Below are positions 1 through 25,490 of a stretch of 25,490 bases of DNA, in pieces. This DNA is from a virus, in IMG/VR virus record IMGVR_UViG_3300034523_000102, positions 1-25,490 of that record, one strand, 5' to 3'. The position numbers and the translations under genes were made by a program. The notes under the pieces are model-generated. The model did no database searches, was not told the origin of the DNA, and saw only the letters and a list, made by a program, of their open reading frames with translations. Position 1 is the first letter of the stretch, and every line of letters begins with the position of its first letter.

Positions 1-28
1 GCCCCATTCTATACGTATAGAATGGGGC
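1..28. other. Candidate telomere-resolution (tel) palindrome
   Basis: The first 28 bases are a perfect inverted repeat: GCCCCATTCTATAC followed directly by its reverse complement, with no spacer. The centre is TATACGTATA, flanked by CCATTC and GAATGG. Protelomerase targets of N15-type linear plasmid prophages are perfect palindromes with alternating pyrimidine-purine centres; N15 itself has CCATTATACG...CGTATAATGG. The site sits next to a partition operon, as telRL does next to sopAB in N15. Whether the palindrome extends to the left cannot be seen because the window begins here. The alternative is a strong dyad operator or an assembly artefact at a contig end. Confidence 0.6.
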
Positions 29-30
29 GC

Positions 31-44
31 GGGTGCATGCACCC
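31..44. repeat. Second perfect palindrome beside the tel-like site
   Basis: GGGTGCATGCACCC is a 14-base perfect palindrome two bases after the 28-base palindrome. It could be an outer binding element of the same protelomerase site or a separate operator. Nothing in the sequence decides between these. Confidence 0.5.
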
Positions 45-62
45 TTGGCCCTATTATGTTCT

Positions 63-103
63 AGGGCTTGGGGTGTATGCTGTCGCAGGGCTTGGGGTGT
101 ATG
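63..103 (+). repeat. 17-bp direct repeat pair (subtelomeric)
   Basis: The 17-mer AGGGCTTGGGGTGTATG occurs at 63-79 and again, identical, at 87-103, a 24-bp period. The second copy runs into an inverted repeat, GGTGTAT (96-102) with ATACACC (117-123). The repeats lie between the tel-like palindrome and the parA promoter, so they may be protein-binding sites (partition, replication or protelomerase). No function is assigned. Confidence 0.6.
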
Positions 104-123
104 GATGCGCACACATATACACC

Positions 124-375
124 TTTAGCCCTTAATGCTTTAGGGATAACAAGGCAGGAGAGCGGCGCGCGATTGCTGGCAATGGATAGCAGGAGGCAAG
201 GGGCGACAAGTCGAAAAACTACACGACGGCGGCCATGCACCATAAGGACGGCGCGTTGCGCCTGCTTGTTTATGGCGCGGGAAACCCGCGCCGGCTGGGG
301 CTTCCAGATCCTGCAGAAAGGACGGGCCATTGCGGGCGGACAATGTCGGCGCTATCGCGCCTGCTGTTTTTTCTC
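124..375. other. Gene-free leader upstream of parA with three GC-rich dyads
   Basis: I see no convincing gene here; open frames exist on both strands but overlap each other and read as low-complexity Arg/Pro/Cys-rich protein. The stretch holds three inverted repeats sharing GGCGC...GCGCC: 250-262 (3-nt loop), 274-292 (GGCGCGGG, AAA loop, CCCGCGCC) and 348-361 (4-nt loop). A partition centromere would be expected close to parAB, and these dyads are candidates; simple GC-rich coincidence is possible. Confidence 0.4.
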
Positions 376-377
376 TT

Positions 378-422
378 TTGTACTTTTGGCCCGTTGTACT
401 TTTTCGCCAATGGCCCTATATT
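378..422 (+). promoter_or_regulatory. parA promoter with 10-bp direct repeat operator
   Basis: A sigma70-like promoter is readable: -35 TTGTAC (394-399), 17-bp spacer, -10 TATATT (417-422). Transcription would start near 429, about 27 bases before the parA start codon. The decamer TTGTACTTTT occurs at 378-387 and again at 394-403, the second copy covering the -35 box. Direct repeats over a par promoter are typical binding sites for ribbon-helix-helix partition proteins, so autoregulation by the downstream parB-like product is inferred. Confidence 0.6.
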
Positions 423-455
423 GTGACCACACCAACAACCGAGGAGGGCGCGGCA

Positions 456-1109
456 ATGGCTGCAAAGGTGATAGCGGTACTCAACCAGAAGGGCGGCACG
501 TCGAAAACGACCACCGCCACCAACGTGGCCAGCTGCCTGGCCGTTAAGCATGGAAAGCGGGTGCTACTGGTCGACCTAGACCAGCAAGGCTCTGCAACCG
601 ACTGGGCGGCGTCCAGGCCAGAGGCCGAGGGCGACGCGGGCCTGATCCCTACCGTATCCATGGGCAAGGCCCTGGCGCGCGACCTGCCGCGCGTTGCGGG
701 TGGCTATGACTACGTCGTCGTCGACGGCGTGCCGCAAATCAGCGAGCTGACTGCCGCGGCCATCCGGGCGGCCGACGCGGTACTGATCCCGGTGCAGCCG
801 AGCCAGTACGACATATGGGCGTGCGGCGACCTGGTGCAGCTGGTGAAAGACCGCCAGGAGATCGCCGACGGCAAGCCGGTGGCGGCGATGATGATCGCGC
901 GGGCAATCCCGGGCACCGTGCTCGAGCGCGACGTGCGCGGCATCCTCGAGGCCTACGACCTGCCAATACTGAGCAGCCAGACCTGCCAGCGGCAGTCCTA
1001 CGCTAGCGGCATCGAGAAGGGCCGCAGCGTCATGGATCTGCCAGACGACAACAAGGCGCGCCTCGAGATCGAAGCGCTGACCGCCGAACTATTGGAGCTG
1101 ACCCAATGA
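456..1109 (+). CDS. parA: ParA-family partition ATPase
   Basis: A 217-residue P-loop ATPase of the short (type Ib) ParA class, which positions low-copy plasmids on the nucleoid. The deviant Walker A is at residues 12-18 (KGGTSKT), Walker A' at about 37-42 (LLVDLD), and Walker B ends at Asp90 (YVVVDGVPQ). There is no N-terminal helix-turn-helix domain, as expected for type Ib. I chose the ATG at 456 because GAGGAGG lies 8 bases upstream and because translation from here begins directly with the first beta strand; the frame stays open to 330 but without a comparable start. Two family positions are unusual: Ser replaces the second Gly of KGGxGK, and the Walker B has DGVPQ instead of D-x-P-P. It overlaps the next gene by 4 bases (ATGA). 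Its presence argues that the phage is maintained as a plasmid. Confidence 0.93.
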   Translation: MAAKVIAVLNQKGGTSKTTTATNVASCLAVKHGKRVLLVDLDQQGSATDWAASRPEAEGDAGLIPTVSMGKALARDLPRVAGGYDYVVVDGVPQISELTAAAIRAADAVLIPVQPSQYDIWACGDLVQLVKDRQEIADGKPVAAMMIARAIPGTVLERDVRGILEAYDLPILSSQTCQRQSYASGIEKGRSVMDLPDDNKARLEIEALTAELLELTQ

Positions 1110-1420
1110 GCACCACCGCAAGTAAGCCGACCATCGAGCGGCCCGGGCGAGCGCAGCCGCTGGCCGAGGAGCACGTCGAGAAGGCCCGCAAGGCCGTAGT
1201 GGCCGACAGCGACGAGAAACAGCTCAAGGTGCTGGCCGCGCCCAAGTACCACCGGGGCATGGCCGAGCTAAAGAACATGACCACCGACAGCGTGCCGGTT
1301 AAGCACCTGCTGCTCGAGGCCATCGAGGATCTGTTCGAGAAGTACGGGCGGGGCGAGGGGCGGTTCAAGGTTGACGACGTGCCAGAACTGCGCCGCCGGC
1401 TTGAATCGCTGATGAAGTGA
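1106..1420 (+). CDS. ParB-like centromere-binding protein (ribbon-helix-helix type)
   Basis: A 104-residue basic/acidic protein starting within the parA stop (ATGA overlap), so the two are translationally coupled. Residues about 40-85 can be read as a short strand followed by two helices (KVLAAPKYHRGMAELKNM, then VPVKHLLLEAIEDLFEKY), the ribbon-helix-helix pattern of small type Ib partner proteins such as ParG or StbB. The first 40 residues look flexible and charged, as the ParA-stimulating tails of such partners do. The call rests on gene order and fold pattern; I recognise no close family from sequence alone. It would bind the repeats upstream of parA and link the plasmid to ParA. Confidence 0.65.
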   Translation: MSTTASKPTIERPGRAQPLAEEHVEKARKAVVADSDEKQLKVLAAPKYHRGMAELKNMTTDSVPVKHLLLEAIEDLFEKYGRGEGRFKVDDVPELRRRLESLMK

Positions 1421-1427
1421 AGAAACA

Positions 1428-1458
1428 GCCCGGCAGCGGGGGCAACCGCTAACCGGGC
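1428..1458 (+). repeat. Nested hairpin after the parB-like gene
   Basis: GCCCGG (1428-1433) pairs with CCGGGC (1453-1458), and inside it GCGG (1436-1439) pairs with CCGC (1446-1449). No T-run follows, so it is not a clear terminator. It could be an mRNA processing or stability element between parAB and the next gene block. Confidence 0.45.
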
Positions 1459-1488
1459 CAGACACATAGACCTTAGAGGGTTCCGAAT

Positions 1489-1638
1489 ATGTCCGCACGC
1501 GACTATACCACCGCGGCAAGCCTGCCGCTGCACCTGGCGCGAGATCCGCGCTATCGCGACCTGGTGCGCCAATTCGCCGAGCAACAGTGCCTGACGGCCT
1601 GGCACGGCATCCTGCGCATGATCGGGGAGGCCGCCTGA
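1489..1638 (+). CDS. Small hypothetical protein (49 aa)
   Basis: A short frame starting ATG TCC GCA CGC and ending TGA at 1636-1638, whose last base starts the next gene (TGATG). A weak purine-rich site, AGAGGG (1475-1480), lies eight bases before the start. The product begins MSARDYTTAASLPLHLARDP and ends ILRMIGEAA. It is predicted mostly helical, with no membrane segment or recognised motif. Support comes from the tight overlap with the following gene, codon use like its neighbours and the ribosome site. No function can be given. Confidence 0.55.
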   Translation: MSARDYTTAASLPLHLARDPRYRDLVRQFAEQQCLTAWHGILRMIGEAA

Positions 1639-1925
1639 TGAGCATCACAGAGAACGTATCCAGCGCCATCGAGCCCGAGGATCTGCACCGCGTCCGCGCC
1701 ATCGCCGCGGCCATCCTCGAGCACCAAGGCTTCCAGGCGTGCGAGCTGCTCGACCTGGTGATCACCGAGGAGGCACCGGCCGACACAATCACCCCGCGCC
1801 GGGCGCGCGCCGAAAGCGCCGTGCAACTGGCCGCCGTGATCGTCAACTACCTTCGCCAGGAGTTCGAGATCCCAGGCGTCGACCACGAGCTCCTGCGCGC
1901 ACTGCAGCGGGAGGCCAACCTATGA
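1638..1925 (+). CDS. Hypothetical protein (95 aa), acidic helical
   Basis: The start is the ATG sharing a base with the previous stop codon; an earlier in-frame ATG at 1587 lies inside the upstream gene and is less likely. The product (MSITENVSSAIEPEDLHRVR...) is acidic and helical through most of its length, with no membrane segment. It ends with an ATGA overlap to the next gene. I do not recognise a family. The position in a coupled cluster that ends in an exonuclease suggests a phage accessory or DNA-metabolism role, which is only a guess. Confidence 0.65.
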   Translation: MSITENVSSAIEPEDLHRVRAIAAAILEHQGFQACELLDLVITEEAPADTITPRRARAESAVQLAAVIVNYLRQEFEIPGVDHELLRALQREANL

Positions 1926-2080
1926 GCCGCAACGCATCCAGCCCCGCCGAGCAGCTTTTCGGCCTGATTTTCGCCGGCCTGGCCGCCCTGGTAGCCGCCG
2001 CCGTATTTATCCGCCGCATCTACACCATGCGCCTCGAAGAGGCCGCCAACGATCACCAGCAAGGGAGCGATAACGAATGA
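1922..2080 (+). CDS. Small single-pass membrane protein (52 aa)
   Basis: A 52-residue product with one clear hydrophobic segment at about residues 12-30 (LFGLIFAGLAALVAAAVFI), followed by a basic stretch (RRIYTMR) and an acidic tail. The basic flank predicts the C-terminus on the cytoplasmic side. Both ends overlap neighbouring genes by 4 bases (ATGA), which supports real translation. The size and single membrane segment would also fit a small holin-like or toxin-like protein, but no lysis gene is beside it and I do not claim that. Confidence 0.6.
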   Translation: MSRNASSPAEQLFGLIFAGLAALVAAAVFIRRIYTMRLEEAANDHQQGSDNE

Positions 2081-2631
2081 AAACCCCAGCAGCACGCGCC
2101 GCACAGTGGCTCGAGCACAACGCCCTGATCCTAGACACCGAAACCACCGGCCTTGATGGCGATGCCGAGGTGATCGAGCTGGCCGTCATCGACTGCACAG
2201 GGCAGGCACTAATCGACACGCTGGTACGCCCGGCGCGCCCTATTCCAGCTGACGCGACAGCTATTCACGGCATCACCGACCAGATGGTGGCCACAGCGCC
2301 AAGCTGGTCGGATGTTCGCGGCCAGCTGCTCGAGCTGATCGCCTCGGGGCGGCACCTGGTGATCTATAACGCCGGATACGACCTGCGCCTGATCCGCCAG
2401 AGCGACGCCATGCACGGCCTCGAGACCCCAGCCATGGCCGCGCACTGCGCCATGCTCACCTACGCCGAACACTGGGGCGAACTTGACCGACGCGGCACCG
2501 GATACCGCTGGCAGCGCCTTGGTAATGCCGCAGCACAGCAGGGCGTCGAGATCCAAGGCACCGCCCACCGCGCCCTAGCCGACTGCCTGACAACGCTCGG
2601 CATCCTGCGCGCGATGGCGAAAGCCGCGTAG
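2077..2631 (+). CDS. DnaQ-like 3'-5' exonuclease (DEDDh)
   Basis: A 184-residue protein with the whole DEDDh exonuclease signature: Exo I LDTETTGL with Asp20 and Glu22, Exo II YNAGYDLRLI with Asp102, and Exo III HRALADC with His164 and Asp169. These residues bind two metal ions and hydrolyse DNA or RNA from the 3' end, as in DNA polymerase III epsilon. The protein is just the catalytic domain; it lacks the C-terminal tail that binds the polymerase alpha subunit. It therefore probably acts alone in DNA repair, degradation or replication. It is the last gene of the coupled 1489-2631 block and is followed by a terminator 20 bases later. Confidence 0.88.
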   Translation: MKTPAARAAQWLEHNALILDTETTGLDGDAEVIELAVIDCTGQALIDTLVRPARPIPADATAIHGITDQMVATAPSWSDVRGQLLELIASGRHLVIYNAGYDLRLIRQSDAMHGLETPAMAAHCAMLTYAEHWGELDRRGTGYRWQRLGNAAAQQGVEIQGTAHRALADCLTTLGILRAMAKAA

Positions 2632-2650
2632 CCATGTAGCCCCATCCACA

Positions 2651-2675
2651 AGCCCGCCCACTCGGCGGGCTTTTT
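2651..2675 (+). terminator. Rho-independent terminator after the exonuclease gene
   Basis: AGCCCGCC (2651-2658), five-base loop, GGCGGGCT (2664-2671), then a run of T. It ends the rightward transcript that begins at parA or within the small-gene block. Confidence 0.88.
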
Positions 2676-2715
2676 GTTACCCTGCGCACCTGCCAACAAG
2701 GGAGAAGCGCACGGC

Positions 2716-3120
2716 ATGAAGAAAAGCACCAAGATCGTCCTGGCCATTGGAGCCGTAGGCCTGCTGTTAGCCGGCTATCAGGACGTAAAAAACCGAGAAA
2801 CCAACGGGCTGCGCCGTGCGCACCTAACCGCCTGGCCAGACCGCACGGTAAGCTGTGAGCACATGAAGGACAACGGCGAGACCTGGGCGCTGTGCCGCTT
2901 CTGGCGCGCCGCCCCGAGCGTCTGGCTCAAGCGCGGCGACGCCTGGGCCGCCGCCGACGGCAATGCACAGATGGTAATCAGCCACCTCGAAAACACGGAC
3001 ACGACAGGGCGAGAACTGCCGCGACTGTACGTCGACCGAAAGACGCCGGTTTATATGACAAAGCCCGTTATGGCCCGATTCGAGGCCGTGAAGGACGAGA
3101 TCCGCGACGAAAGGCGCTAA
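2716..3120 (+). CDS. Hypothetical membrane-anchored or exported protein (134 aa)
   Basis: The start is the ATG at 2716, preceded by AGGGAG (2699-2704). The N-terminus is a signal sequence or anchor: MKKSTK, then a hydrophobic segment (residues 7-20, IVLAIGAVGLLLAG). The remaining roughly 110 residues look periplasmic and contain two Cys residues about 13 apart (VSCEH and ALCRF) that could form a disulfide. I recognise no family. It stands alone between two terminators and is convergent with the Rha operon. Such isolated exported genes in prophages are often lysogenic-conversion or superinfection-exclusion genes, but no residue here shows that. Confidence 0.7.
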   Translation: MKKSTKIVLAIGAVGLLLAGYQDVKNRETNGLRRAHLTAWPDRTVSCEHMKDNGETWALCRFWRAAPSVWLKRGDAWAAADGNAQMVISHLENTDTTGRELPRLYVDRKTPVYMTKPVMARFEAVKDEIRDERR

Positions 3121-3129
3121 CAGCAGCAC

Positions 3130-3145
3130 GGCGTAATTTTGCGCC
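3130..3145. repeat. Imperfect palindrome with AATTTTGCG core
   Basis: GGCGTAATTTTGCGCC is a partial dyad (outer GGCG/CGCC) just after the stop of the exported-protein gene. It resembles the CAAAATTG-centred palindromes at 3923, 4413 and 4431. Confidence 0.4.
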
Positions 3146-3164
3146 CTGCGTCTCCAGAAACGAA

Positions 3165-3200
3165 GAAAGCCCCCACCGCCGCAAGGCAGTGGGGGCTTTC
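3165..3200. terminator. Bidirectional terminator between convergent genes
   Basis: GAAAGCCCCCACCGCC (3165-3180), GCAA loop, GGCAGTGGGGGCTTTC (3185-3200). The stem has 15 pairs with one mismatch and CTTTC on both sides, so it can stop transcripts from the rightward gene ending at 3120 and from the leftward rha gene ending at 3212. Confidence 0.85.
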
Positions 3201-3211
3201 TCGTTATGGCG

Positions 3212-4096
3212 TCAGTGCGTTTTGTTGGCGCGCGGCAGCATCGGGTGATGCTCCTCGACAGACATTGCCGCAAGGTAAATCGGCTCAGCAGCAGCCGCCA
3301 CGGCGCTGACCAGCTCGTTACTGGCCGTCGCAATGCGCTGGAAGTGCTCGCCACCCTCCCGCGCCGTGCGCGCCAGGCGCAGATAGCGCTCGCGGTCTAC
3401 CTCCATCATCTGAGGCGGCACGTAGTACTGCACCGCCGCCAGGCCGAGCTTTGACGCAAGCCGAACGGTTGACCGGCGGGCGATCGCCTCCCAGGCCAGC
3501 GGTGTGAACAGCGCGCGCTGCTCGCCTCGGTCGTCACGGAAAAGCCAGACGCTGCCGGCCGGAAACTCTCGCTCGTAGCGATGATAAAGACTCAGCGTCG
3601 AGTTGCGCAGGCGGTAGCCGACCAGCACGTCGATCTCCTGATCGCTCAGCCACAGATTGCCGGCCGTATCCCACTCGGCACCCACCACGCCCTTGCCGAA
3701 GTCCAGTTCGACTACGCGCCCGGTGAACTCCGCGCCCACCTCGGCGTTGTATTGCTCGGACTGCTGGCGCAGCAACTCGGCCTCCATGCGGTTGAAGGCG
3801 GCGATGTAAGCCTCTTTCCAGCGCGCAGCCTCTTTGCCGGTGAAACCCATGCACAGAAAGGTGAAGCCGTCGCGCGTCATGCGAAAGAACGGCTCCGGCT
3901 TGTTGTTTGAGCCGCGCCGGGAACACTCCGCAAAATTGCGGAGTGTGAATTCTGGCGAGCAATCTAGGCTCCTGATGCGCTTTAGAACGTCATCGTGGCG
4001 CTTGCCAAATACCTCGGCGACAACCAATGAAGTTGTAGTCGGGCGACCATCCTCCATGGTTACGGCGGACGAGTCCAAGACGTGTTGGTCGGTCAT
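3212..4096 (-). CDS. rha: Rha-family phage regulatory protein
   Basis: A 294-residue protein. Residues about 20-110 match the phage pRha domain: SLVVAEVFGKRHDDVLKRIRSL, then RNFAE, PFFRMTRDGFTFLCMGFTGKEAARWKEAYIAAFNRME. Members were first noted as lambdoid phage proteins that block growth in IHF-deficient hosts and are often linked to the lysis-lysogeny choice. The C-terminal 180 residues (acidic, with DQEIDVLVGYRLRN and FTPLAWEAIARRS) are not a domain I recognise and may be an antirepressor-like effector part. The ATG overlaps the stop of the preceding small gene (ATGA). A near-perfect 24-base palindrome lies inside the pRha coding region (3923-3946). The mechanism of Rha is not known in detail, so the regulatory role is taken from the family. 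Confidence 0.85.
   Translation of the reverse strand: MTDQHVLDSSAVTMEDGRPTTTSLVVAEVFGKRHDDVLKRIRSLDCSPEFTLRNFAECSRRGSNNKPEPFFRMTRDGFTFLCMGFTGKEAARWKEAYIAAFNRMEAELLRQQSEQYNAEVGAEFTGRVVELDFGKGVVGAEWDTAGNLWLSDQEIDVLVGYRLRNSTLSLYHRYEREFPAGSVWLFRDDRGEQRALFTPLAWEAIARRSTVRLASKLGLAAVQYYVPPQMMEVDRERYLRLARTAREGGEHFQRIATASNELVSAVAAAAEPIYLAAMSVEEHHPMLPRANKTH
3923..3946. repeat. 24-base palindrome inside rha (CAAAATTG core)
   Basis: ACACTCCGCAA (3923-3933) and TTGCGGAGTGT (3936-3946) are perfect 11-base arms around AA. The sequence also encodes the conserved RNFAEC part of pRha, so coding constraint may explain part of it. The close match to the non-coding palindrome at 4431-4460 (shared CAAAATTGCGGAG) suggests a real binding site. 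Confidence 0.5.
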
Positions 4097-4293
4097 TCTT
4101 CTTGCTCCCTGGCTGCGATCAGCAGCCGATTAATTACCTTCGGCGCGGACTCTCCGCGCTGCTCAAAAAAAGCCAGGGCGGCGGCCGCCTCTGGCACAAG
4201 TCGGATAGCGGAAAGCTTTCTCCCCCCTTTTTCCAGCAGGCGCGCCTCGTACTCCTCGACACGCTGCGTCACGCTTTTCGGTTTCTTTTCCAT
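4093..4293 (-). CDS. Small ribbon-helix-helix-like DNA-binding protein
   Basis: A 66-residue product. After a basic N-terminus (MEKKPKSVTQR), residues 25-62 can be read as strand (RKLSAIRLVP), helix (EAAAALAFFEQRG) and helix (SAPKVINRLLIAAREQEE), the Arc/MetJ-type ribbon-helix-helix order. GAGGGG lies just upstream of the ATG. It is the first gene of a two-gene operon, coupled to rha by ATGA. Its promoter contains two TTG...CAA palindromes, so I infer that it represses its own operon. The fold call is from pattern only. Confidence 0.6.
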   Translation of the reverse strand: MEKKPKSVTQRVEEYEARLLEKGGRKLSAIRLVPEAAAALAFFEQRGESAPKVINRLLIAAREQEE

Positions 4294-4306
4294 CCCCTCC
4301 CTCTCG

Positions 4307-4353
4307 CGTTGTGATGCAACGTCCGCAGATTATCGCGCGTTGTGTTACAACGC
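4307..4353. promoter_or_regulatory. Two operator-like palindromes at the RHH-rha promoter
   Basis: Site B is GCGTTGT (4337-4343), GTT, ACAACGC (4347-4353), placed between the -35 and -10 boxes. Site A is CGTTG (4307-4311), five bases, CAACG (4317-4321), placed at the expected transcription start. The shared half-site CGTTG and the positions are what a repressor-controlled promoter would show. Confidence 0.6.
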
Positions 4354-4355
4354 AA
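4327..4355 (-). promoter_or_regulatory. Promoter of the RHH-rha operon
   Basis: On the minus strand: -35 TTGCGT (4355-4350), exactly 17 bases, -10 TAATCT (4332-4327). Transcription would start near 4320, about 27 bases before the ATG at 4293. Confidence 0.6.
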
Positions 4356-4369
4356 CAAATTTCAGGCAC

Positions 4370-4402
4370 AAAAAAGGCCCCACCGCCGCGAGGCGATGGG
4401 GC
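4370..4402 (-). terminator. Terminator of the leftward late operon
   Basis: Read on the minus strand, GCCCCATCGCC, TCGC loop, GGCGGTGGGGC, then C and six T (complement of 4370-4375). Eleven-base arms with one mismatch. It lies about 60 bases after the stop of gene D and so closes the structural-gene transcript. Confidence 0.88.
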
Positions 4403-4412
4403 AGGAACATCT

Positions 4413-4426
4413 GCGCAATTTTGCGC
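4413..4426. repeat. Palindrome GCGCAATTTTGCGC
   Basis: Six-base arms around TT, between the late terminator and gene D. Same AATTTTGCG core as the sites at 3130 and, on the other strand, 3923 and 4431. Confidence 0.55.
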
Positions 4427-4430
4427 GCAT

Positions 4431-4460
4431 GATCATCTCCCCAAAATTGCGGAGATGATC
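4431..4460. repeat. Long palindrome GATCATCTCC...GGAGATGATC
   Basis: Perfect 10-base arms (4431-4440 and 4451-4460) around CCAAAATTGC. It starts 3 bases past the gene D stop in the leftward direction. There is no T-run, so it is not a terminator by itself. It shares the CAAAATTGCGGAG string with the palindrome inside rha. Confidence 0.6.
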
Positions 4461-4463
4461 GAA

Positions 4464-5483
4464 TCACTCTTGGCGTCCGTCTGGATAGGTCGCCTCGAGG
4501 GTGCAGCGGTAGCTTTGCTGGCGCGATCCGCTGGCGGTCACCTTGTCGATTGACCAGGTACCGCGCATGAAACTGGGCCAGCTGTCATCGAGCTCGAGCA
4601 GCCCCTCGGCGCTTAGCGCCGGATTCCCTGGGCAATCAATCCGCAGCTTTGCCGCCTCGCGCTGCGTCTTGCGCTGCTCGCCCTCGGCCGCGGCCTTCGC
4701 CTCGGCTTCGTTCTGGTAACGCTGGCGCACCGTCTTGAACGGCCCCTCGCCCACTTCCACCACGCATTCCTTGCCGGCGCTGCCGTCCCACCAGGTGGTC
4801 TTGCAGCCCTTGAAGCGCACGCGGCTGTCCTGGTCGATGCTCGCCGCAATAAAGGCGCGCTCGCCCGGGCGGTTGTCCTTGGTCACCGACAGCGTCACCG
4901 GCGGCAGGGTCTTGCCGCTCAGCGTCTTGACCTGGCCCCGACGGGCCAACACGTAGAGGTCATTGACCGGCTTTGTCACCGCGTCATAGCGGCGCGCGAG
5001 CCGGGTCAGAAAGCCCATGTCCGTTTCGTTCGACTGGTCGATGTGGGCGATTGGTATCGCGTCCAGCTCGGGGGCCACGCGCGGCGAGAAGCCGTGCTTG
5101 GTGGTCAGCTGGCGGAATACCTGGCCGAGCGTGGTCATGGCGTAGCTTGCCGAGCGCCGGGCCTTGAAGCCGGTCTCGTCCTTTACCTTGAAGGGGGCCG
5201 CGGTGGCCACGATCAGCAGCAGGGCCGGGAACAGTTGGGGCGTGGTGCGCGTGACGACAAACTCGCCCTTATCCACCAGCCCCGTTTCCTTGTAACCGAC
5301 CCGCAGCCCCACCTTGCCGTCGACGCTGGGCAAGCCGTCGAGGCCCTCGATGTTCACCGTTAGCTTGAGGGTGTCCGATTCGACGCCCGCGGCGTCGACG
5401 TGCTCCCAGTCAACCAGGCGCGCATTGATCAGGGCGGCGTTGCTGCCGTAGATCTCAACCGCGGGCGTGTACCCTATCGACAT
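4464..5483 (-). CDS. D: Late control / tail hub protein gpD
   Basis: A 339-residue protein of the P2 gpD family (related to VgrG gp27-like hubs). The N-terminus GYTPAVEIYGSNAALINARLVDWEHVDAAGVESDTLKLTV and the motif DGKVGLRVGYKETGLVDKGEFVVTRT are typical. In P2 gpD forms the hub joining the tail tube to the gpV spike. Gene D is the last of the late operon, as in P2 (FETUD), and is followed by palindromes and a terminator. It starts ten bases inside the upstream small gene. A Lys/Glu/Ala-rich stretch around residues 250-290 is probably a helical linker. Confidence 0.92.
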   Translation of the reverse strand: MSIGYTPAVEIYGSNAALINARLVDWEHVDAAGVESDTLKLTVNIEGLDGLPSVDGKVGLRVGYKETGLVDKGEFVVTRTTPQLFPALLLIVATAAPFKVKDETGFKARRSASYAMTTLGQVFRQLTTKHGFSPRVAPELDAIPIAHIDQSNETDMGFLTRLARRYDAVTKPVNDLYVLARRGQVKTLSGKTLPPVTLSVTKDNRPGERAFIAASIDQDSRVRFKGCKTTWWDGSAGKECVVEVGEGPFKTVRQRYQNEAEAKAAAEGEQRKTQREAAKLRIDCPGNPALSAEGLLELDDSWPSFMRGTWSIDKVTASGSRQQSYRCTLEATYPDGRQE

Positions 5484-5701
5484 AGCGCACCACCACAGCG
5501 GCAGCGGGGCACCTCCTGATAGCGCCCAGTCGAAAGCGCCATTACCAGCCCCTCGACCAACTCCTCGGGCGACGCACTTGCCAGCGCCTGCCGCCAGAAC
5601 TGGCGCGCACGCACGGCGTCAATGTCGCGACGGATCTGCATTCCGATGATGCTCTCGAGGTCAGCAGAGCTCAGCGGCGGGAATGACTTTTCTTCTGACA
5701 T
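5474..5701 (-). CDS. Small hypothetical protein between X and D (75 aa)
   Basis: The start is the ATG at 5701 (MSEEKSFPPLSSADLESIIGM); the frame is open further upstream but into the end of gene X. The product is helical and acidic at the N-terminus and ends with a Cys-rich tail (RCRCGGALCR) that could bind a metal. The stop overlaps the gene D start by ten bases, which supports translation. I recognise no family. By position it may be a small tail or assembly factor. Confidence 0.6.
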   Translation of the reverse strand: MSEEKSFPPLSSADLESIIGMQIRRDIDAVRARQFWRQALASASPEELVEGLVMALSTGRYQEVPRCRCGGALCR

Positions 5702-5709
5702 AAATCCCC

Positions 5710-5922
5710 CTAATCCCACGCGGTAAGCGGTGCAGCCTGGGCCGGCTTGCTGGCCAGCTCGGGCAGGTTCACCCATAAGCCAGCCGGCAGGGCCGGGCCA
5801 TACTCGGCCAGGCCAGGGTTGACCAACCACAAGGCCTCCTCGGCCTCGTCGTCAGATCGCCCCAGCTCGCGAAAGAGCAGCACGTTTGCCGTATCACCGG
5901 CGATGGTTCTAACCCGTCGCAT
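5710..5922 (-). CDS. X: Tail protein X
   Basis: A 70-residue protein of the P2 gpX / phage tail protein X family. These are LysM-like small proteins of the tail tip. Visible features: start MRRVRTIAGDTANVLLFRELGRSDDEAEEALWLVNPGLAEYGPALPAG, with the hallmark NPGLA and a proline-rich end typical of the family. The ATG at 5922 sits 14 bases inside the end of U. Order U-X-D is shared with R-pyocins and VHML-type phages. Confidence 0.88.
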   Translation of the reverse strand: MRRVRTIAGDTANVLLFRELGRSDDEAEEALWLVNPGLAEYGPALPAGLWVNLPELASKPAQAAPLTAWD

Positions 5923-6298
5923 TGACGAACTCCTGCAGCTCAAGCGTCCACGACAACAGCGTCGCGGTACCGTCGTCGATCACGCGCTCCTGGTCTTCGC
6001 TCACGGCGTCGATTCGCCAGCGCCCCCACACCCGGCCGACGCCGTCGACCAGGGTGTAGGGCTGGCGCGCGTCGGCCATGGCGCGCAGCTCGTCGAGCTT
6101 GGCCATGCCGGCCGCCAGCTGGGCCTTGCCGCTCAGCCGCAGCGACTCCAGGCCCTGGCCGGTGTTGTGCGACATCGGCTTGCTGCTGATGATGTCCAGG
6201 TCTACCCAGCCGCCCGTGGTCTTGCGCGCGAGGCGCTCATACGGGAAGCCAGAGGCGAGGCCGAACACGAACTCGCCCAGGGCCATCTGCTGTCGCAT
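5909..6298 (-). CDS. U: Tail protein gpU
   Basis: A 129-residue protein of the P2 gpU family: MALGEFVFGLASGFPYERLARKT, then HNTGQGLESLRLSGKAQLAAG, and VDGVGRVWGRWRIDAVSEDQ. gpU is needed for tail assembly between tape measure and hub. Its first ATG overlaps the stop of T (TGATG); a second ATG five codons on is a possible alternative. Confidence 0.9.
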   Translation of the reverse strand: MRQQMALGEFVFGLASGFPYERLARKTTGGWVDLDIISSKPMSHNTGQGLESLRLSGKAQLAAGMAKLDELRAMADARQPYTLVDGVGRVWGRWRIDAVSEDQERVIDDGTATLLSWTLELQEFVNATG

Positions 6299-18704: not shown

Positions 18705-20588
18705 TTAAACGCCTTTCACGCCAACGCAGAAGGCTTCCTTGCGGCGCACGGCGGCGTCGACGTCTTGGAACACGCGCAGCATCAGGCCGTCGCTGCCTGC
18801 CAGGGCATACGGGTCGGGCTTGAGATCCAGCACGCCCCACAGGCCGCACACCAGCTGCGAGAAGTCGCCGAACAGCCACTTGTCCGCCGGCATCTGGTTG
18901 GTCGCGTGCGCGCCGTAGCCGTTGACCTCACCGCTCTGCCAGATACGCTCGCCGGTACCCTCGAAGGCTTGCTTCTTCTTGGCAGCGCCACGTTGGGTGA
19001 TGCTGGTCAGGTAGGCCAGGCCGTCGCCCTCGACGTTGAAGGTGCCCGCTTTGGTCTCCATCTCGACGACAGAATCCCAGTCGATGCCAAGCGCCGGATA
19101 GGTCACAGACGGCAGGCCGACTTGGTTCAGCAGGCCCAGCGGCTGGTTGTCCGCGCCGGTACCGAGCAGCATCGCCAGGTCGATGGCAACGCCCAGGCCC
19201 TCGACCAGGTCGCTGATGATCAGCGCCTCGACAGACTTCGCCGCTTGCTTGCGCAGCTTGCGGGTGATCGGGATCGCGCCCGCGATGGTCTTCGGCGTCA
19301 GCGGGATGGTGGTCAGGTCGAAGTCGCTCGGGGTGACGTTGTCGCCCTCGCCCAGCCAGTAGAAGTTGGAGCCGTTGACCTTCTTCGGCAGATCCAGATC
19401 GCCGACCAGGCCGCCGAGCATGCGCATGCCGAGCTTGGCCATCATGGTCTTGTTGCGCAGGATGTCGATAAACTGATCGACGCGCAGCTCAGTGGCCACC
19501 AGCTCGCCACCCTTGCCGGCCTCGCCCTTCGACATACCACGCACGAGCAGGTCATGCGGCACGAAGAAGCCGCGGGCCTCTTTCTTGAGGGTGTCGGCCA
19601 GGGCCAGGCTGACCTCGCGCTCCAGGCCGGCCTTCGACCAGTCCTTATCCGCGTAGGCGTTCATCGCACGCATCAGCGAGAACTGATCCATTTCCTTTTC
19701 GGTCATGCCCATGCCGCGCGCGGAAACATCCTTGACGAAGCCCGGCAGGTCGCGCTCGCCTTCCTTCGGAGCCTTGGGCGCGAGTGGCTTCGGCTGGCCT
19801 GGCATGGCGCGCTCGAGCAGCACAGCGCGGAACTGATCGAGCGACTGACCGGAGCTAACCGCGCTGGCCGCCAGGTCGCGCTGGTTGTAGCGCTCGCCCA
19901 GGATGTTGATGTCGGCGATGCGCTGGCGCTCGATCATCACCGGGTCGGTGGTGACAGTTACGGCCGGTTGTGCGCGGGTCTGGCCGTCGTCTTGGGGTTC
20001 GTTTGCCTTCGGCATTGCAATACCTCGAATAGTGATGGTGTTGGTCGTTGCTTCTTTGGAGCGCCCCACCCCGACGGTCGGGTCTGCAGGCACGGATACG
20101 CTGGAAACCTCGTAGGGCTCCCAGCGGGTAACGCGGTAGTGATCGAGGCCGTTCTCGGAACGCTCGAGCACCATTTCATGCACCAGGTAGCCGCAGCTGA
20201 TGTTGCGGCGGATCCCGTCGGCGACGTCCTGCCAGATCTCCTCGGCGTACTGGCCGCGGGAGAAGCGCACCAGGGCGCGCAGCTTGCGGTCGCCGTCCAG
20301 CCATGCCTTCTCGACTACGCCGATCTGCCGCCAGTGCTGGTCGAGCAGTGGCGCGCCGGCATGCAGGCGCGTGAGGTCAATCGAATCGGGCGAGTGGTCG
20401 AGCACTTCCATGCCGAACCAACGGCGCACCGGGTATTCGCTGGATACCGCGACCTCGACGGTGCGCTGCTCGGTATCCAGGGTGCCGATGTCTACAGCGA
20501 GCGAGCGCTGCAGCTGCTGCCCTTCAATCTGGCGAATGACGGGCATCGGCTCCCCGCTACTCGTCTTCTTCGCGGTCGTCGCCGGCAT
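18705..20588 (-). CDS. Fused prohead protease and major capsid protein (HK97 type)
   Basis: A 627-residue fusion. Residues about 45-175 are an HK97-type prohead protease (peptidase S78): likely catalytic His85 in LLDQHWRQIGVV, Ser131 in RRNISCGYLV, followed by WEPYEVSSVSVPADPTVGVGR. Residues about 180-330 form a Gln/Ala/Lys-rich linker or scaffold (delta) domain. Residues about 330-625 are the HK97-fold capsid (ELRVDQFIDILRNKTMMAKLGMRMLGGL; YWLGEGDNVTPSDFDLTTIPLTPKTIAGAIPITRKL; GTGADNQPLGLLNQVG). The fused protease would cut the chain and free the capsid protein, as in some siphophages and linear plasmid phages. The ATG at 20588 overlaps the portal gene by 32 bases; the ATG at 20546, just after GGGGAG, is a good alternative. 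Confidence 0.92.
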   Translation of the reverse strand: MPATTAKKTSSGEPMPVIRQIEGQQLQRSLAVDIGTLDTEQRTVEVAVSSEYPVRRWFGMEVLDHSPDSIDLTRLHAGAPLLDQHWRQIGVVEKAWLDGDRKLRALVRFSRGQYAEEIWQDVADGIRRNISCGYLVHEMVLERSENGLDHYRVTRWEPYEVSSVSVPADPTVGVGRSKEATTNTITIRGIAMPKANEPQDDGQTRAQPAVTVTTDPVMIERQRIADINILGERYNQRDLAASAVSSGQSLDQFRAVLLERAMPGQPKPLAPKAPKEGERDLPGFVKDVSARGMGMTEKEMDQFSLMRAMNAYADKDWSKAGLEREVSLALADTLKKEARGFFVPHDLLVRGMSKGEAGKGGELVATELRVDQFIDILRNKTMMAKLGMRMLGGLVGDLDLPKKVNGSNFYWLGEGDNVTPSDFDLTTIPLTPKTIAGAIPITRKLRKQAAKSVEALIISDLVEGLGVAIDLAMLLGTGADNQPLGLLNQVGLPSVTYPALGIDWDSVVEMETKAGTFNVEGDGLAYLTSITQRGAAKKKQAFEGTGERIWQSGEVNGYGAHATNQMPADKWLFGDFSQLVCGLWGVLDLKPDPYALAGSDGLMLRVFQDVDAAVRRKEAFCVGVKGV

Positions 20589-22068
20589 CGTCTGGCTTCT
20601 CCTGGTTGGTTGGTGTTGGTTCGGCGAGCAGCCCCATTTCTCGGAGCTGCTGCTCCTCTTGAGCGAGCTCGTCGAAAACCTCGTCGGGGTCGTCGCCGTT
20701 GAGGCGGATGTAGTGGCTGCGCGACTTGATGCGGCCGGCGACGCTTTCGCGCGAGGCCTTCGAGTCCTTCAAGGGGTCGACCCAGTCCCAGCCGCGGGCT
20801 TGCCACTCCTGGTCGCTGCAGCGAGCCAGATCGCGCGGGGCGATCTTGATCGCGCCCTTGAGCAAGGCGCAGTTGAACCACTCCTCGCCCACGCGCTCGA
20901 GCAGCTCGCTGATCACGAGCTCTTGGCAGCACTTGTAGAAGTCGCGCTCGTCCAGCTCGCCAGAACGCAGCGAGGAGAAGCTGACGCCCTCCAGGTCGTT
21001 GGCCAGCCGGTTGTAGCTCGGCCCAAGGCCAGCGGCACCGCCGCGCAGGGTGTCCTTCACGAACGGCGCGTAGTCGCTACCGGGCGAGGCGTTCTGGTGC
21101 GGCTTGTAGGTCAGGCCGTAGGGCAGCACCTTGGTGGTGCCTGCCTCGACCTCCTCGACCACGTCGACGTCGCCCGTCTCGTCGTCGGGTGGATCCAGCC
21201 ACTCGGCGTCCTGCTCGTAGAAGCCGGTGATCTTGGCCGCGTGTTCGGCCTTGACCAGGGTCGCCGAGCGAAACTCGCCCAGGTGGTGGATGTCCACGGC
21301 CGCGGCGTGCGTCCAGGTGAAGCCGCGCGACTGATGCGGCCTCCAGGGGTCGAAGGTGTGGATCAGCTCGCTCGCCGGGATCCGCTCGTAGCGCTCCTCG
21401 GCGCGGCGCAGGATGTCGCCCGGGTGGTCGTTAAGCATCCAGTACGCGACCGGGCGCTCCCACTCGTCGATCTCGACGCCCATCCTGATGCGGTTGCCGT
21501 TGTCGAGCAGCTGGTTAAGGTTCAGATCGAGGCGGTCGGCCTCGAGGATCTGCAGGGCGAAGCCCCAGCGGTTCGGCCAATTGCGCACCAGACGCACGAG
21601 CACCTCGCCATCGCGCGCCAGGGTCTCGAGCCAGAGCCAGGAGAAGGTCACGTAGCTATAGCGGCCGGTGACGTCGAAGACGCCCTTCTTGCAGAATTTC
21701 CGCCATTCCTTTTCGATCAGCCGGCGCGTGACGCGGTCGGGCTTGCCGTCTGGCAGCAGCGCCTTGGATTGCAGGCGGATGCCGTAGGGGCCGATCACGT
21801 TCTGCCGCAGCAGGCGATAGAAGCGCTTGAGGTAGGAGGTGTTGATCGACTGCTCGCGGGCGCGCTGTCGCAGCGTCTCGTGGTCGGCGTAGATCACCTG
21901 GTCAGCGTCGGCACCGCTCGAGCGCCCCGACCAGGCTTTCGCCAGGCGGCCACCGCCGGCCATCTTGAATCCGCGGCGACGCCCCACTTGCGGCTCGACG
22001 CGCTCGGCGGGCGGCGCAGGGGTACCGCCCAGGCCGAGGAAACGGCCCAGGGCTTTAAACGGTTGCAT
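20557..22068 (-). CDS. Portal protein (lambda gpB family)
   Basis: A 503-residue protein of the lambda portal family. It has the N-terminal SWSGRSSGADADQVIYADHETLRQRAREQSINTSYLKRF-type sequence (read: ADQVIYADHETLRQRARE), then RQNVIGPYGIRLQSKA, WLWLETLARDGEVLVRLVRN, LQILEADRLD, and IPASELIHTFDPWRPHQSRGFTWTHAA. It forms the dodecameric DNA channel in one head vertex. Acidic tail DDREEDE. It begins three bases after the gpW-position gene. Confidence 0.94.
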   Translation of the reverse strand: MQPFKALGRFLGLGGTPAPPAERVEPQVGRRRGFKMAGGGRLAKAWSGRSSGADADQVIYADHETLRQRAREQSINTSYLKRFYRLLRQNVIGPYGIRLQSKALLPDGKPDRVTRRLIEKEWRKFCKKGVFDVTGRYSYVTFSWLWLETLARDGEVLVRLVRNWPNRWGFALQILEADRLDLNLNQLLDNGNRIRMGVEIDEWERPVAYWMLNDHPGDILRRAEERYERIPASELIHTFDPWRPHQSRGFTWTHAAAVDIHHLGEFRSATLVKAEHAAKITGFYEQDAEWLDPPDDETGDVDVVEEVEAGTTKVLPYGLTYKPHQNASPGSDYAPFVKDTLRGGAAGLGPSYNRLANDLEGVSFSSLRSGELDERDFYKCCQELVISELLERVGEEWFNCALLKGAIKIAPRDLARCSDQEWQARGWDWVDPLKDSKASRESVAGRIKSRSHYIRLNGDDPDEVFDELAQEEQQLREMGLLAEPTPTNQEKPDDAGDDREEDE

Positions 22069-22071
22069 AGG

Positions 22072-22587
22072 CTACCCCATGGACAATTTGACCACTCGGC
22101 CGGTCGGCCAGCGGCGGTTCTTTTCGCGCATCAGCTCGCGCCGGTACTTGCTGCGCAGGGCATCGAGGCGCTCGATGGGGATCCGGTCGAGCCGCAGGCC
22201 GTCGATCTCATAGCTCTGCTGGTCTTTCGGGATCCGCTTCTCGAGCGCAGCCTCGATCAGCGCGAGCATTCGCTCGGCATGGCTGCGCACGTCGTAGGGC
22301 TCAGCCGTGGCCAGGTTGGCCGCAACCTCGAGACGGCCGGTGGCCACCGTCTTGCGCGTTTCGCCAAGCTCGACGAAGGCGGCCCAGCGGTACGCCCCAG
22401 GCGACCAAGCCGCGGTGGTCGCGGCGGCGACCTCGATCCGATAGGGCTCGGCGGCAATCGCCTCGAGCACGTACTGCGCCGGGCCGATCAGGGCGTAGAA
22501 CAGTCGCCAGCCATCGGCCGCCGGATAGCCCGGCACGGCGCGTTCCCAGGCGACAGAGTCGCCCGCGTGCAGTTGTGTCGGTTCCAT
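22072..22587 (-). CDS. Hypothetical protein in the gpW position (head completion?)
   Basis: A 171-residue protein between terminase and portal, the place of lambda gpW. The first 90 residues are a beta-rich part (TQLHAGDSVAWERAVPGYPAADGWRLFYALIGPAQY, then YRWAAFVELGETRKTVATGRLEVAANL). The last 45 residues (YEIDGLRLDRIPIERLDALRSKYRRELMREKNR) resemble the C-terminal 'R.v.r.s.eeL..lr..ye.e' of gpW-type head-tail proteins. Role in head completion is inferred from place and this tail only. Confidence 0.65.
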   Translation of the reverse strand: MEPTQLHAGDSVAWERAVPGYPAADGWRLFYALIGPAQYVLEAIAAEPYRIEVAAATTAAWSPGAYRWAAFVELGETRKTVATGRLEVAANLATAEPYDVRSHAERMLALIEAALEKRIPKDQQSYEIDGLRLDRIPIERLDALRSKYRRELMREKNRRWPTGRVVKLSMG

Positions 22588-22610
22588 AGGGTTGCCTCAA
22601 CCACCGGCGA

Positions 22611-24761
22611 TCACCGCCGGGGCTTTCTGATGATGTTGAAGCGGGGCTTGGCCTTGGCTTTCGGCGCGTCAGCCTTGCGCGTCGGCGCAGGCTTGGCGGG
22701 CTTTTCCTCAACCAGGGCGGGCTCGCTTGCCGGCATTACCGGCTCGGGATCTGCAGCCGGTGACGGATCCGCCTCCTCGTCGGGCAGGCGCTCAGCCATC
22801 GGCCCGGCCTTGATCGCCTCGCGCAGCTGCGCCTTGGTCAGCTGGCCCGCCTTGCGGCGGTGCAGCTTGGCGTGCATAGCCATGACGTATTGCATGGCCT
22901 CGCAGTCGAGGTAGTGGTTTTCGCCAACCTGGTGGAACTTGCCCTCGGCCTCGCGCCACTCCTCGCCGACCAGCTGCTTGCAGTAGTCGTCGGTGACCTG
23001 CTGATGCAGCAGCCACCAGCCCGGGCGAGTGTCAGGGCGACCGAAACGGCTATGCACCCAGCGCTTGGCCAGGGGCGAGTCGAACGCCCAGCGGGCGTCG
23101 CCACGCTTGCGGGTCTTGCCCTTGCGGTCGACCTCGACCATTTCCTTGCGGAATGGCTTGTCGAGGCGTTCGCGACCGCGCAGGGCCATGGCCCGGCCCT
23201 TGTGCTCGTTGATAAAGCGGTAGACCTGGTCGTCGCGGTAACCGATGTCGATGCCGGTCTGGTTGATCGGATGGCCGTCGTAATCGGTGTCGATCAGCTC
23301 GCTGAGCTGCTCCCATACCGCGTCCTGGTCAGTCTCACCCCATAGCTCGCCGTGCTCGAGGAGCATCGAGCCGAGGCCGGCGTACCAGGCGCGCACCACG
23401 TAGACCAGGCGGTTTTTCTGCACGTCGATAGTGCAGAAGATCCGCAGCGGCTCGAGCAGCAGCACGGTGGCGGCGTAGCCGTAGCACTGGGCGCGAACCT
23501 CCTCCCAAGTAGGCACGTCGCCTGCCTGGGCGTAGCACTCGCCGAAGCCGGTGTTGTAAACCGCCAGCAGATCCGCCGGATCGTTCGACAATTGCGCCGC
23601 GAGCAGATCCTTTGCCAGAGCGCCGTAGGTCTTTTTCGAGCTAAACGAGCACAAGCCAGACGCGGCAAAGGTGAAGTGCGTCGAGCCCTCGGTGTCGGCG
23701 ACGCCGGTCACTTCGCCGGCCTTGCTGACCGACTGACCCGGTGCCACAGCAACTCCGCGGGCGTTCATGGTCGGCCGCCATTTGCTTTCGATCATGCACC
23801 CGTGCGACGGACAGGTAAGCCGCGCCGACTTCTGCGCCTCGTCCGGCGTGCATTCGGTCTCTGAGCCCTTGCCCGGCCACCAAAGCAACCCCGACCAGGG
23901 GATGAAGTACTCGCCGCACTCGGGACAGGGCACGGCCCATTCGTGGCGAGTGCCCGACTGCCAAAGCCGCCAGACCGCCGAGCCCAGCGACTTGGCCGGC
24001 GCGACCGCCCAATGCTGCAGCCCGGACTTTTCATGTTTGTGTTTGCTCACGCGGCCATGGGTCGGCGTGGCGGTGTAGCCAATTTTCGAGCCGTCGTAGG
24101 CGTCGCCGCGGCGTTCCACCAGGCTGACGGTCGAGCCCTCGCCGGTGTTCACGATACGGTCGACCTCGTCGACCATGATCAGGCCGGCAGAGTCGGCCGA
24201 CAGGCCGGACGGCGAGCCCGCCCACACAAAGCGCAGCTTGGTGCCGGCGATCCACTTCACGAACATACTCGAGCGGTTAACGTCGAGCTTGGCAGTCAGC
24301 GACTCGCATTCGCTGATCATGTCGTCGAACTTCGGCACTACTGCGTCTTTCAGCAGGGGCGCAGTGGGGGCGATATACATGATCGGCGTCGGATCTTCAT
24401 CGAGCCGGTGGCCGATGATGTTCTCCATCGTCACCGACTTGCCCATTTGTGTGGCCGTGATGAAGGTCACCCGGTCAAAGCAGGGCTGCGCAAACGCCCA
24501 GGAGACCGGGCGCATGTACGGATTAACGTCGGGATTGAACTTGCCGGGGCGCGGCGAGCTCGGCGGCATGATGCGCTTGTCGCGCGCCCACTCGTCAGCC
24601 GTCCTCGGCGGTGGAGCCTGCACCAGATTCGAGACGTAATGAATCGAGGCGGCTAACGTCTTCAGTGAAATCGCGTGCGCGACGTTCGAGGCGCTCGGCA
24701 GTAGCTGCGCGGATGCTCCGCGTTTCCTCAAATAGTCGAGCTCGGATTGCGGCAGGGTCAT
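22611..24761 (-). CDS. Terminase large subunit (lambda gpA family)
   Basis: A 716-residue packaging motor. The ATPase motif ITATQMGKSVTME is at residues 101-113 and Walker B LIMVDEVDRI at 194-203, followed by the coupling motif YTATPT (about 229-234). A Cys cluster (CPECGEYF, then LTCPSHGC) at about 275-330 fits the family's zinc-binding region. The nuclease domain has IDIGYRDDQVYRFI (about 500). Lambda-type enzymes cut cos, so this supports cos packaging. The ATG at 24761 makes a 167-base overlap with the small subunit; a GTG at 24623, before the conserved APPPRTADEWA, is an alternative start. A Pro/Ala/Lys-rich C-terminal tail of about 60 residues probably binds the portal. Confidence 0.94.
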   Translation of the reverse strand: MTLPQSELDYLRKRGASAQLLPSASNVAHAISLKTLAASIHYVSNLVQAPPPRTADEWARDKRIMPPSSPRPGKFNPDVNPYMRPVSWAFAQPCFDRVTFITATQMGKSVTMENIIGHRLDEDPTPIMYIAPTAPLLKDAVVPKFDDMISECESLTAKLDVNRSSMFVKWIAGTKLRFVWAGSPSGLSADSAGLIMVDEVDRIVNTGEGSTVSLVERRGDAYDGSKIGYTATPTHGRVSKHKHEKSGLQHWAVAPAKSLGSAVWRLWQSGTRHEWAVPCPECGEYFIPWSGLLWWPGKGSETECTPDEAQKSARLTCPSHGCMIESKWRPTMNARGVAVAPGQSVSKAGEVTGVADTEGSTHFTFAASGLCSFSSKKTYGALAKDLLAAQLSNDPADLLAVYNTGFGECYAQAGDVPTWEEVRAQCYGYAATVLLLEPLRIFCTIDVQKNRLVYVVRAWYAGLGSMLLEHGELWGETDQDAVWEQLSELIDTDYDGHPINQTGIDIGYRDDQVYRFINEHKGRAMALRGRERLDKPFRKEMVEVDRKGKTRKRGDARWAFDSPLAKRWVHSRFGRPDTRPGWWLLHQQVTDDYCKQLVGEEWREAEGKFHQVGENHYLDCEAMQYVMAMHAKLHRRKAGQLTKAQLREAIKAGPMAERLPDEEADPSPAADPEPVMPASEPALVEEKPAKPAPTRKADAPKAKAKPRFNIIRKPRR

Positions 24762-25167
24762 CTATTACCGCCAAGTCTGCAGCGCATCGGCTCGGCAGTG
24801 CGTCGAGCTGGGTCGAGTAGACCGCCGCGATGCTTGTGTTAAGGGTGACCCAAGCGTCGAGCGGGATCAGCCGGCCGCGCACCTGGTCAATTTCAAGCTG
24901 CAGCTTTTCGCGCCGAGCTCGCTTGAGCAGGCGATCCTCGGTCGAAGCCGAGCCAGCGCCCTCGTCGTCGTCACCCTCCTCGCCCAGCTCGCGCCGAACT
25001 TCGCGGGCGATCAGCCACTCGATGGCGGCCTGGCTGTCGATCTCGACCGCCACCCCTCGACCGCCACCGCCCACCGTTGGCAGGCCCTCGTCGATCAGGT
25101 TAGAGATCCAGCGGGGCGACTTGCCGAGCAGGTCGGCCAGGTCTTTCTTGCTGATGATCTTGGCCAT
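24595..25167 (-). CDS. Terminase small subunit (Nu1-like)
   Basis: A 190-residue protein of the Nu1 type, which recognises the cos DNA for the large subunit. Residues 5-31 are a winged helix-turn-helix (SKKDLADLLGKSPRWISNLIDEGLP). The middle is a charged coiled coil (DRLLKRARREKLQLEIDQVRGRLIPLDAW, the typical 'k.rlqle...g.lip'). The helical C-terminus contacts the large subunit. No purine-rich ribosome site precedes the ATG on this strand (the leader is CCTTTCTCCCCT), which is unusual. The first gene of the late block; DNA upstream is the cos candidate. Confidence 0.88.
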   Translation of the reverse strand: MAKIISKKDLADLLGKSPRWISNLIDEGLPTVGGGGRGVAVEIDSQAAIEWLIAREVRRELGEEGDDDEGAGSASTEDRLLKRARREKLQLEIDQVRGRLIPLDAWVTLNTSIAAVYSTQLDALPSRCAADLAVIDDPAAIRARLFEETRSIRAATAERLERRARDFTEDVSRLDSLRLESGAGSTAEDG

Positions 25168-25260: not shown

Positions 25261-25490
25261 CGAGGCCTAGCCGCACCTGGCCGCGAGGTCAGTCGGGCGA
25301 TGCAGGACGGCAGGCCTCGAGATAGGAAGAACGGACTGGATTCGCAAACCCAAACACGCGCGAGGCCCGCGAGTTTCACACCCGTGAAGGGGGAGGGGCC
25401 GGGGGAGTACCTAAAACCCGTGGCGCACCAACCTGGGGCGAGATCAATAGACGACGCCTTCTGTATTGATCGCTTCATTGCAGCGAACGC
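25261..25490. other. Gene-free region upstream of terminase: candidate cos region
   Basis: I see no convincing gene; the one long frame on the minus strand (25188-25478) is rich in Arg, Pro and Ser with no ribosome site and no family. The region holds an inverted repeat CGAGGCCT (25261-25268) with AGGCCTCG (25312-25319), TTCAC-ACCC-GTGAA (25375-25388), and a GC block GGGGGAGGGGCCGGGGGAG with nearby GTAC (25389-25411). ATCAATA (25443-25449) with TATTGAT (25464-25470) follows. Lambda-type terminases bind and cut in such a region just before their own genes. The exact cut cannot be read. Confidence 0.4.

What the first reader, a model, noticed from the sequence alone, without database searches (positions are those of the whole stretch)
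1..28. Perfect 28-base palindrome resembling a protelomerase target
The palindrome has no spacer and a TATACG-CGTATA-like centre with CCATT flanks, much like tel sites of N15-type phages, and stands next to parAB. If true, the phage lives as a linear plasmid with closed hairpin ends. That would be a telomere phage in a high-GC, probably pseudomonad, host, with a P2-like tail. The palindrome falls exactly at the window edge, which would fit a contig that ends at a hairpin.
Basis: partly seen in the sequence, partly recalled or inferred. Interest (0 to 1): 0.85.

Follow-up and report, generated by a model that had tools for sequence, protein, structure and literature searches.

The report
Telomere site of a Pseudomonas phage
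The 28-base palindrome at the edge of this phage fragment is the centre of the site that a phage enzyme cuts and seals into hairpin ends, so the phage most likely lives in its Pseudomonas host as a linear plasmid; such phages are already known, and this is a further member.

Summary
The palindrome is real: GCCCCATTCTATAC|GTATAGAATGGGGC, perfect, no spacer. It is the core of a telomere-resolution site (telRL). The 22-bp core recurs in 18 other IMG/VR contigs and 3 Pseudomonas/Stutzerimonas genomes; 17 of those 21 records carry a TelK-type protelomerase, divergent from parA across the palindrome in typical sites with both flanks. The nearest relative (98.2% over window 1-11,484) has protelomerase about 0.2 kb left of the site, just beyond where this fragment stops. 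Three Pseudomonas plasmid records are inverted dimers, a fourth is a noisier one, and two isolate contigs are perfect palindromes of 43.3 and 31.7 kb; every axis found falls on this core, as hairpin read-through or replicated telomeres would give. Gene order matches VP882 and phiHAP-1, whose cores differ by one base per half.

Corrections: the centre is TATAC|GTATA; nearest kin are VP882/phiHAP-1, not N15; the full site has arms of 29-38 bp; the fragment probably stops where left and right telomeres diverge. Pseudomonas telomere phages of this type were reported in 2025 (PMC12042878): a new member of a known kind. I found no report of the site's modular anatomy with matched left/right changes.

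The parts
1..28 (.). core of the telomere-resolution site (telRL): perfect 28-bp palindrome, predicted turn-around at 14/15
   Evidence: same 22-bp core in 21 other records; axis of inverted dimers; CP096940 record begins at the base matching window 15
15..52 (+). right half-site (right telomere arm), including the outer module; the left half-site beyond base 1 is missing from the fragment
   Evidence: pairs with the left half in G007 (40-nt arms, 95% complementary); alignment A3 and pair counts
31..44 (.). nested palindrome GGGTGCATGCACCC, outer module of the half-site
   Evidence: arm positions 20-29 change only in matched pairs across the family
64..131 (.). telomere-proximal repeats: GGGCTTGGGGTGTATG at 64-79 and 88-103, inverted copy ATACACCTTTAGCCC at 117-131; possible partition or protein-binding sites
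456..1109 (+). parA, 217-aa Walker ATPase, reads away from the telomere
   Evidence: Pfam AAA_31 5e-28; PHROG ParA-like partition protein 8e-54; start codon chosen by comparison with relatives
1106..1420 (+). 104-aa putative ParB-type partner (weak ribbon-helix-helix match)
   Evidence: PF20605 below cut-off and phrog_15913 of unknown function; position only
2077..2631 (+). 3'-5' exonuclease (DNA polymerase exonuclease subunit)
   Evidence: similar place in VP882
3212..4096 (-). Rha-family phage regulator
4464..17863 (-). P2-like contractile tail and neck genes: gpD hub, gpU-like, tape measure, tube FII, sheath, fibre and fibre assembly, gpI, gpJ-like, gpW-like, gpV-type baseplate
18705..25167 (-). 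major head protein, portal, head-tail joining, large and small terminase
   Evidence: 71.6% DNA identity to VP882 terminase genes
25365..25386 (-). candidate cos region (conserved CACGGGTGTGAAACTCGCGGGC)
   Evidence: aligns with the start/end junction of the VP882 record; inference only

Best explanation
The palindrome is the core of telRL, the target of a TelK/TelN-type protelomerase, in a VP882/phiHAP-1-like myophage of Pseudomonas. On infection the virion DNA circularises through cos, and the protelomerase (gene just left of window base 1, divergent from parA) binds the near-palindrome as a dimer, makes staggered cuts around 14/15, and folds and seals each half into a hairpin. The genome becomes a linear plasmid prophage of about 37-41 kb with protelomerase at one end and parA at the other, partitioned by ParA. 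Replication gives inverted L-L' and R-R' junctions that the same enzyme resolves. Shown here: the site, its conservation, the neighbouring protelomerase in relatives, the inverted junctions in relatives, and no tyrosine integrase. Inferred: that this phage has the gene, the exact cut, and the hairpin chemistry.
For: Perfect palindrome beyond chance. 22-bp core in 21 other records; 17 of those 21 have a PF16684 protelomerase. Protelomerase and parA diverge from the site in typical records with both flanks. G007, 98.2% identical over window 1-11,484, has a 560-aa protelomerase about 0.2 kb left of the core matching TelK 2v6e at 1.9e-57; R275, K300, K380, R383, H416 and Y425 of TelK are kept in the Pseudomonas enzymes (their catalytic role is from my own knowledge). 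NZ_CP096940, NZ_CP102178 and NZ_AP022474 are 77,056, 75,476 and 79,236-bp inverted dimers, NZ_CP115281 a noisier one, and isolate contigs G017 and G001 are 100% self-palindromes; axes lie on this core. Arms covary: 18 of 37 pairs with two-sided changes, score 0.320 against 0.092 in shuffles. Same gene order as VP882 and phiHAP-1. No tyrosine integrase in the window or nine records.
Against: The window itself contains no protelomerase; it is a fragment. Several short-read contigs, including from cultured P. alcaligenes and S. kunmingensis, run through the L-R junction with 127-base end overlaps, so unresolved DNA exists in those samples; this fits virion or spontaneously induced DNA but is not a hairpin. 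Inverted dimers could be replication intermediates or assembly products rather than direct images of sealed hairpins. No raw reads were available. Only tyrosine integrases were searched.
Confidence: 0.96

Rival explanations
1. The palindrome is an operator for a dimeric repressor or partition protein between two divergent genes, not a telomere.
For: It lies between divergent transcription units and the flanks hold repeated GGTGYAT motifs. Telomere and operator roles can coexist.
Against: An operator does not explain inverted dimers and self-palindromic contigs whose axes fall on its centre, the co-occurring protelomerase, or one-base-per-half similarity to VP882/phiHAP-1 cores.
Confidence: 0.02
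2. Assembly artefact: a fold-back at a contig end produced a false palindrome.
For: It lies exactly at the window edge, and chimeric fold-backs give palindromes.
Against: The same core lies inside contigs with unique flanks on both sides, e.g. G007 with an identical right flank, and across independent samples and isolates.
Confidence: 0.005
3. Telomere site of a defective or integrated relic: the site is real but this phage has lost the protelomerase and is not a linear plasmid.
For: The gene is not in the fragment, and an orphan core does exist in a chromosomal prophage of P. japonica.
Against: The window's structural genes and terminase are open and colinear with complete relatives; the missing part simply lies beyond the contig edge.
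Confidence: 0.015

Closest known systems
Halomonas phage phiHAP-1 and Vibrio phage VP882 (genus Hapunavirus), P2-tailed telomere phages
   Same: Same order: structural genes, ParA, telomere site, protelomerase, replication gene; same core but one base per half (CCCATACTATAC against CCCATTCTATAC); protelomerase 58% and 52% identical to that of G007.
   Different: Vibrio/Halomonas instead of Pseudomonas; only 66-72% DNA identity in patches; outer site modules differ in sequence.
Pseudomonas and Stutzerimonas telomere phages reported by Byers et al. 2025 (PMC12042878)
   Same: Same host genera and same relation to VP882/phiHAP-1; this phage very probably falls in that group.
   Different: The passages read there identify them by protelomerase; the word palindrome does not occur in the main text. 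Supplements were not readable.
N15, phiKO2, PY54 telomere phages
   Same: Same mechanism class; N15 and phiKO2 cores CCCATTATACGC also start CCCATT; protelomerase about 33% identical.
   Different: Lambda-like siphophages with large SopA/SopB-type partition genes and a GC|GC centre instead of AC|GT.

Membership tests
Telomere (protelomerase) phages | large palindromic telRL site between the two genome arms | tested here: met
   left half read in relatives only
Telomere (protelomerase) phages | protelomerase gene next to telRL | tested here: met
   17 of 21 other records carrying the core, including the nearest relative; not in the window fragment itself
Telomere (protelomerase) phages | linear plasmid prophage with covalently closed hairpin ends | tested here: inconclusive
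   inverted dimers and self-palindromic contigs with axes on the core are strong indirect evidence; sealed ends need an experiment
Telomere (protelomerase) phages | plasmid partition genes and no integrase | tested here: met
   parA; no PF00589 in the window or nine records; serine integrases not searched
Hapunavirus-like (VP882/phiHAP-1) group | P2-like contractile tail, gpA-type large terminase, parA | tel | protelomerase order | tested here: met
   protelomerase position by relatives
Hapunavirus-like (VP882/phiHAP-1) group | genus-level genome similarity | tested here: not met
   only short patches at 66-72% DNA identity; probably a separate genus, but no formal demarcation was run
TelK/TelN protelomerase (PF16684) | catalytic domain and active-site residues | tested here: met
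   for relatives: PF16684 about 99-108 bits in nearly all; TelK 2v6e match; residues aligned
N15-type phages | lambda-like tail and SopA/SopB partition pair | tested here: not met
   P2-like tail and 217-aa ParA

The most novel reading that the evidence does not exclude
The two telomeres of these linear phages evolve in concert. Within the resolution site two modules per half (arm positions 1-14 and 20-29) change only in matched left/right pairs (10 and 8 matched changes, no single-arm change), while the linker 15-19 and the outer part 30-37 drift mostly independently. Positions 13-14 vary often yet always match. Left and right halves lie at opposite ends of the prophage, so either the enzyme demands symmetry without demanding a fixed base, or the protelomerase reaction itself copies sequence between the ends.
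Probability: 0.25. Interest if true: 0.55.

Novelty: new member of a known kind. Interest (0 to 1): 0.42.

Why it matters
It identifies the telomere-resolution site for the Pseudomonas branch of telomere phages, a group known mainly from protelomerase genes, and gives a short DNA signature for finding such phages and their hosts. It shows that several 'circular' 75-79 kb Pseudomonas plasmid records are probably inverted duplicates of linear phages of about 38-40 kb, which matters for plasmid databases. The paired, modular variation of the site gives a testable model of what the enzyme contacts.

Tried and rejected
Centre TATACGCGTATA: absent from the window. N15 membership: rejected on tail type, partition genes and core sequence. 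Contig fold-back artefact: rejected, since the core is internal in many contigs. Hairpin tip as the contig end: not favoured, since the fragment goes 14 bp past the centre and stops where the relative's left and right halves first differ; G005 starts at the same point of its own site. Right end of the window as a cos end: the conserved cos-like stretch lies about 100 bases inside the edge. Second axis of NZ_CP115281: no clean palindrome at its record origin. CP075795: single copy, no core, ends inside telomere-type repeats. No record with a Pseudomonas host in the phage collection gave a protelomerase match. Literature on Pseudomonas telomere phages beyond PMC12042878: two further searches gave nothing. 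Structure prediction was not run, because sequence similarity to TelK already settled the fold.

Full report
Observation. The window starts with GCCCCATTCTATAC|GTATAGAATGGGGC, a perfect palindrome of 28 bases with no spacer. Its arm of 14 is twice the next best in the window; base composition predicts about 0.0003 such arms, and 1 of 300 first-order simulations reached 14. The centre is TATAC|GTATA; TATACGCGTATA does not occur. The window is a 25,490-base virus record.

The same core elsewhere. The central 22 bases occur in 19 stretches of 18 other IMG/VR contigs and in contigs of Pseudomonas alcaligenes, Stutzerimonas kunmingensis and P. japonica. A Pfam ResT-TelK_cat protelomerase (PF16684) is present in 17 of these 21 records. 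The four without it are a 5.3 kb fragment, one contig that holds only the parA-side half of a genome (G017), and the two views of what looks like the same P. japonica chromosomal locus. In typical records holding both flanks, the protelomerase begins about 170-275 bases on one side of the centre and parA about 425-460 bases on the other, diverging.

The missing left side. G007 (40,964 bases, 127-base terminal overlap, so a closed circle in assembly) is 98.2% identical to window 1-11,484, with an identical right half-site. It carries a 560-aa protelomerase about 0.2 kb left of the core, which matches Klebsiella phiKO2 TelK (2v6e, E 1.9e-57). TelK residues R275, K300, K380, R383, H416 and Y425 are kept in the Pseudomonas proteins; their catalytic role is from my own knowledge. 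In G007 the 28-bp core is the middle of an 80-base inverted repeat, 95% complementary. The left and right halves first differ at position 15 from the centre. That is exactly where the window begins, and contig G005, whose second copy shows its own L-R junction, also begins at that point of its site. A break there is what an assembler would make if both L-R and R-R' junctions were in the sample. This is inference.

Signs of inverted telomere junctions. Four Pseudomonas plasmid records related to the window are inverted dimers: NZ_CP096940 (2 x 38,528), NZ_CP102178 (2 x 37,738), NZ_AP022474 (about 2 x 39,618), and NZ_CP115281 (97-99.9% identical halves, one axis found). The axes fall on the centre of this core, and NZ_CP096940 starts at the base equivalent to window 15. 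Two contigs of one isolate, 43,314 and 31,688 bases, are 100% self-palindromes centred on the core; one carries parA beside the axis and the other the protelomerase, and their halves together make 37,501 bases. Such structures arise when reads pass around a hairpin, or from replicated telomere junctions; both need this mechanism. Short-read contigs that pass through the L-R junction also exist, including from two cultured isolates. This fits virion or induced DNA; the cycle of cos circularisation followed by telRL processing is established for telomere phages (PMC10612081).

Surroundings. The window encodes parA, a small possible partner, an exonuclease, a Rha regulator, a P2-like contractile tail, head genes and terminase. 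No tyrosine integrase was found in the window or nine related records. Order and content match Vibrio phage VP882 and Halomonas phage phiHAP-1, whose telomere cores are CCCATACTATAC|GTATAGTATGGG, one base per half different. N15 and phiKO2 have CCCATTATACGC|GCGTATAATGG.

Anatomy of the site. In 14 Pseudomonas-type sites plus phiHAP-1, 37 arm positions pair in 96.2% of cells; 18 pairs show changes on both sides, and the covariation score is 0.320 against 0.092 for shuffles and at most 0.074 when slid. Mapped on a protelomerase tree by parsimony (13 tips), positions 1-14 show 10 matched and no single-arm changes and positions 20-29 show 8 and none, whereas 15-19 and 30-37 mostly change singly. 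The sample is small and the tree is simple, so this is a lead.

Known or new.

Noticed in passing
L022 7482-7503 (P. japonica DSM 22348 contig; apparently the same locus as L008 3920-3941): Orphan exact 22-bp telomere core with a decayed left arm and no right arm inside a lambda-like prophage tail module in a large contig; the genome has no PF16684 match. It may be a relic or captured half-telomere, and could be cut if a telomere phage infects.
   Followed up: partly
NZ_CP096940.1, NZ_CP102178.1, NZ_AP022474.1, NZ_CP115281.1 (L059-L066): Plasmid records listed as circular, 75-79 kb, are inverted duplicates of linear telomere phages of about 38-40 kb; annotated gene counts are doubled.
   Followed up: yes
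window 31-131: GGTGYAT motifs cluster beside the telomere: 6 of 11 in the window lie in the first 240 bases, including two exact copies of GGGCTTGGGGTGTATG 24 bases apart; possibly a partition site or a binding site for a telomere protein.
   Followed up: partly
window 25365-25386: Conserved stretch upstream of the small terminase gene that aligns with the end/start junction of the VP882 record: candidate cos site.
   Followed up: partly
window 11485-14630 against G007: 98.2% identity to the nearest relative ends abruptly at 11,484, across the tail-fibre region, and resumes at 75.8% from 14,630: the two phages are mosaics of different lineages.
   Followed up: no
L073 (Vibrio phage VHML record ends): VHML is deposited with terminal repeats marked at both ends but no full telomere palindrome was found inside the record, so its core could not be compared.
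   Followed up: no
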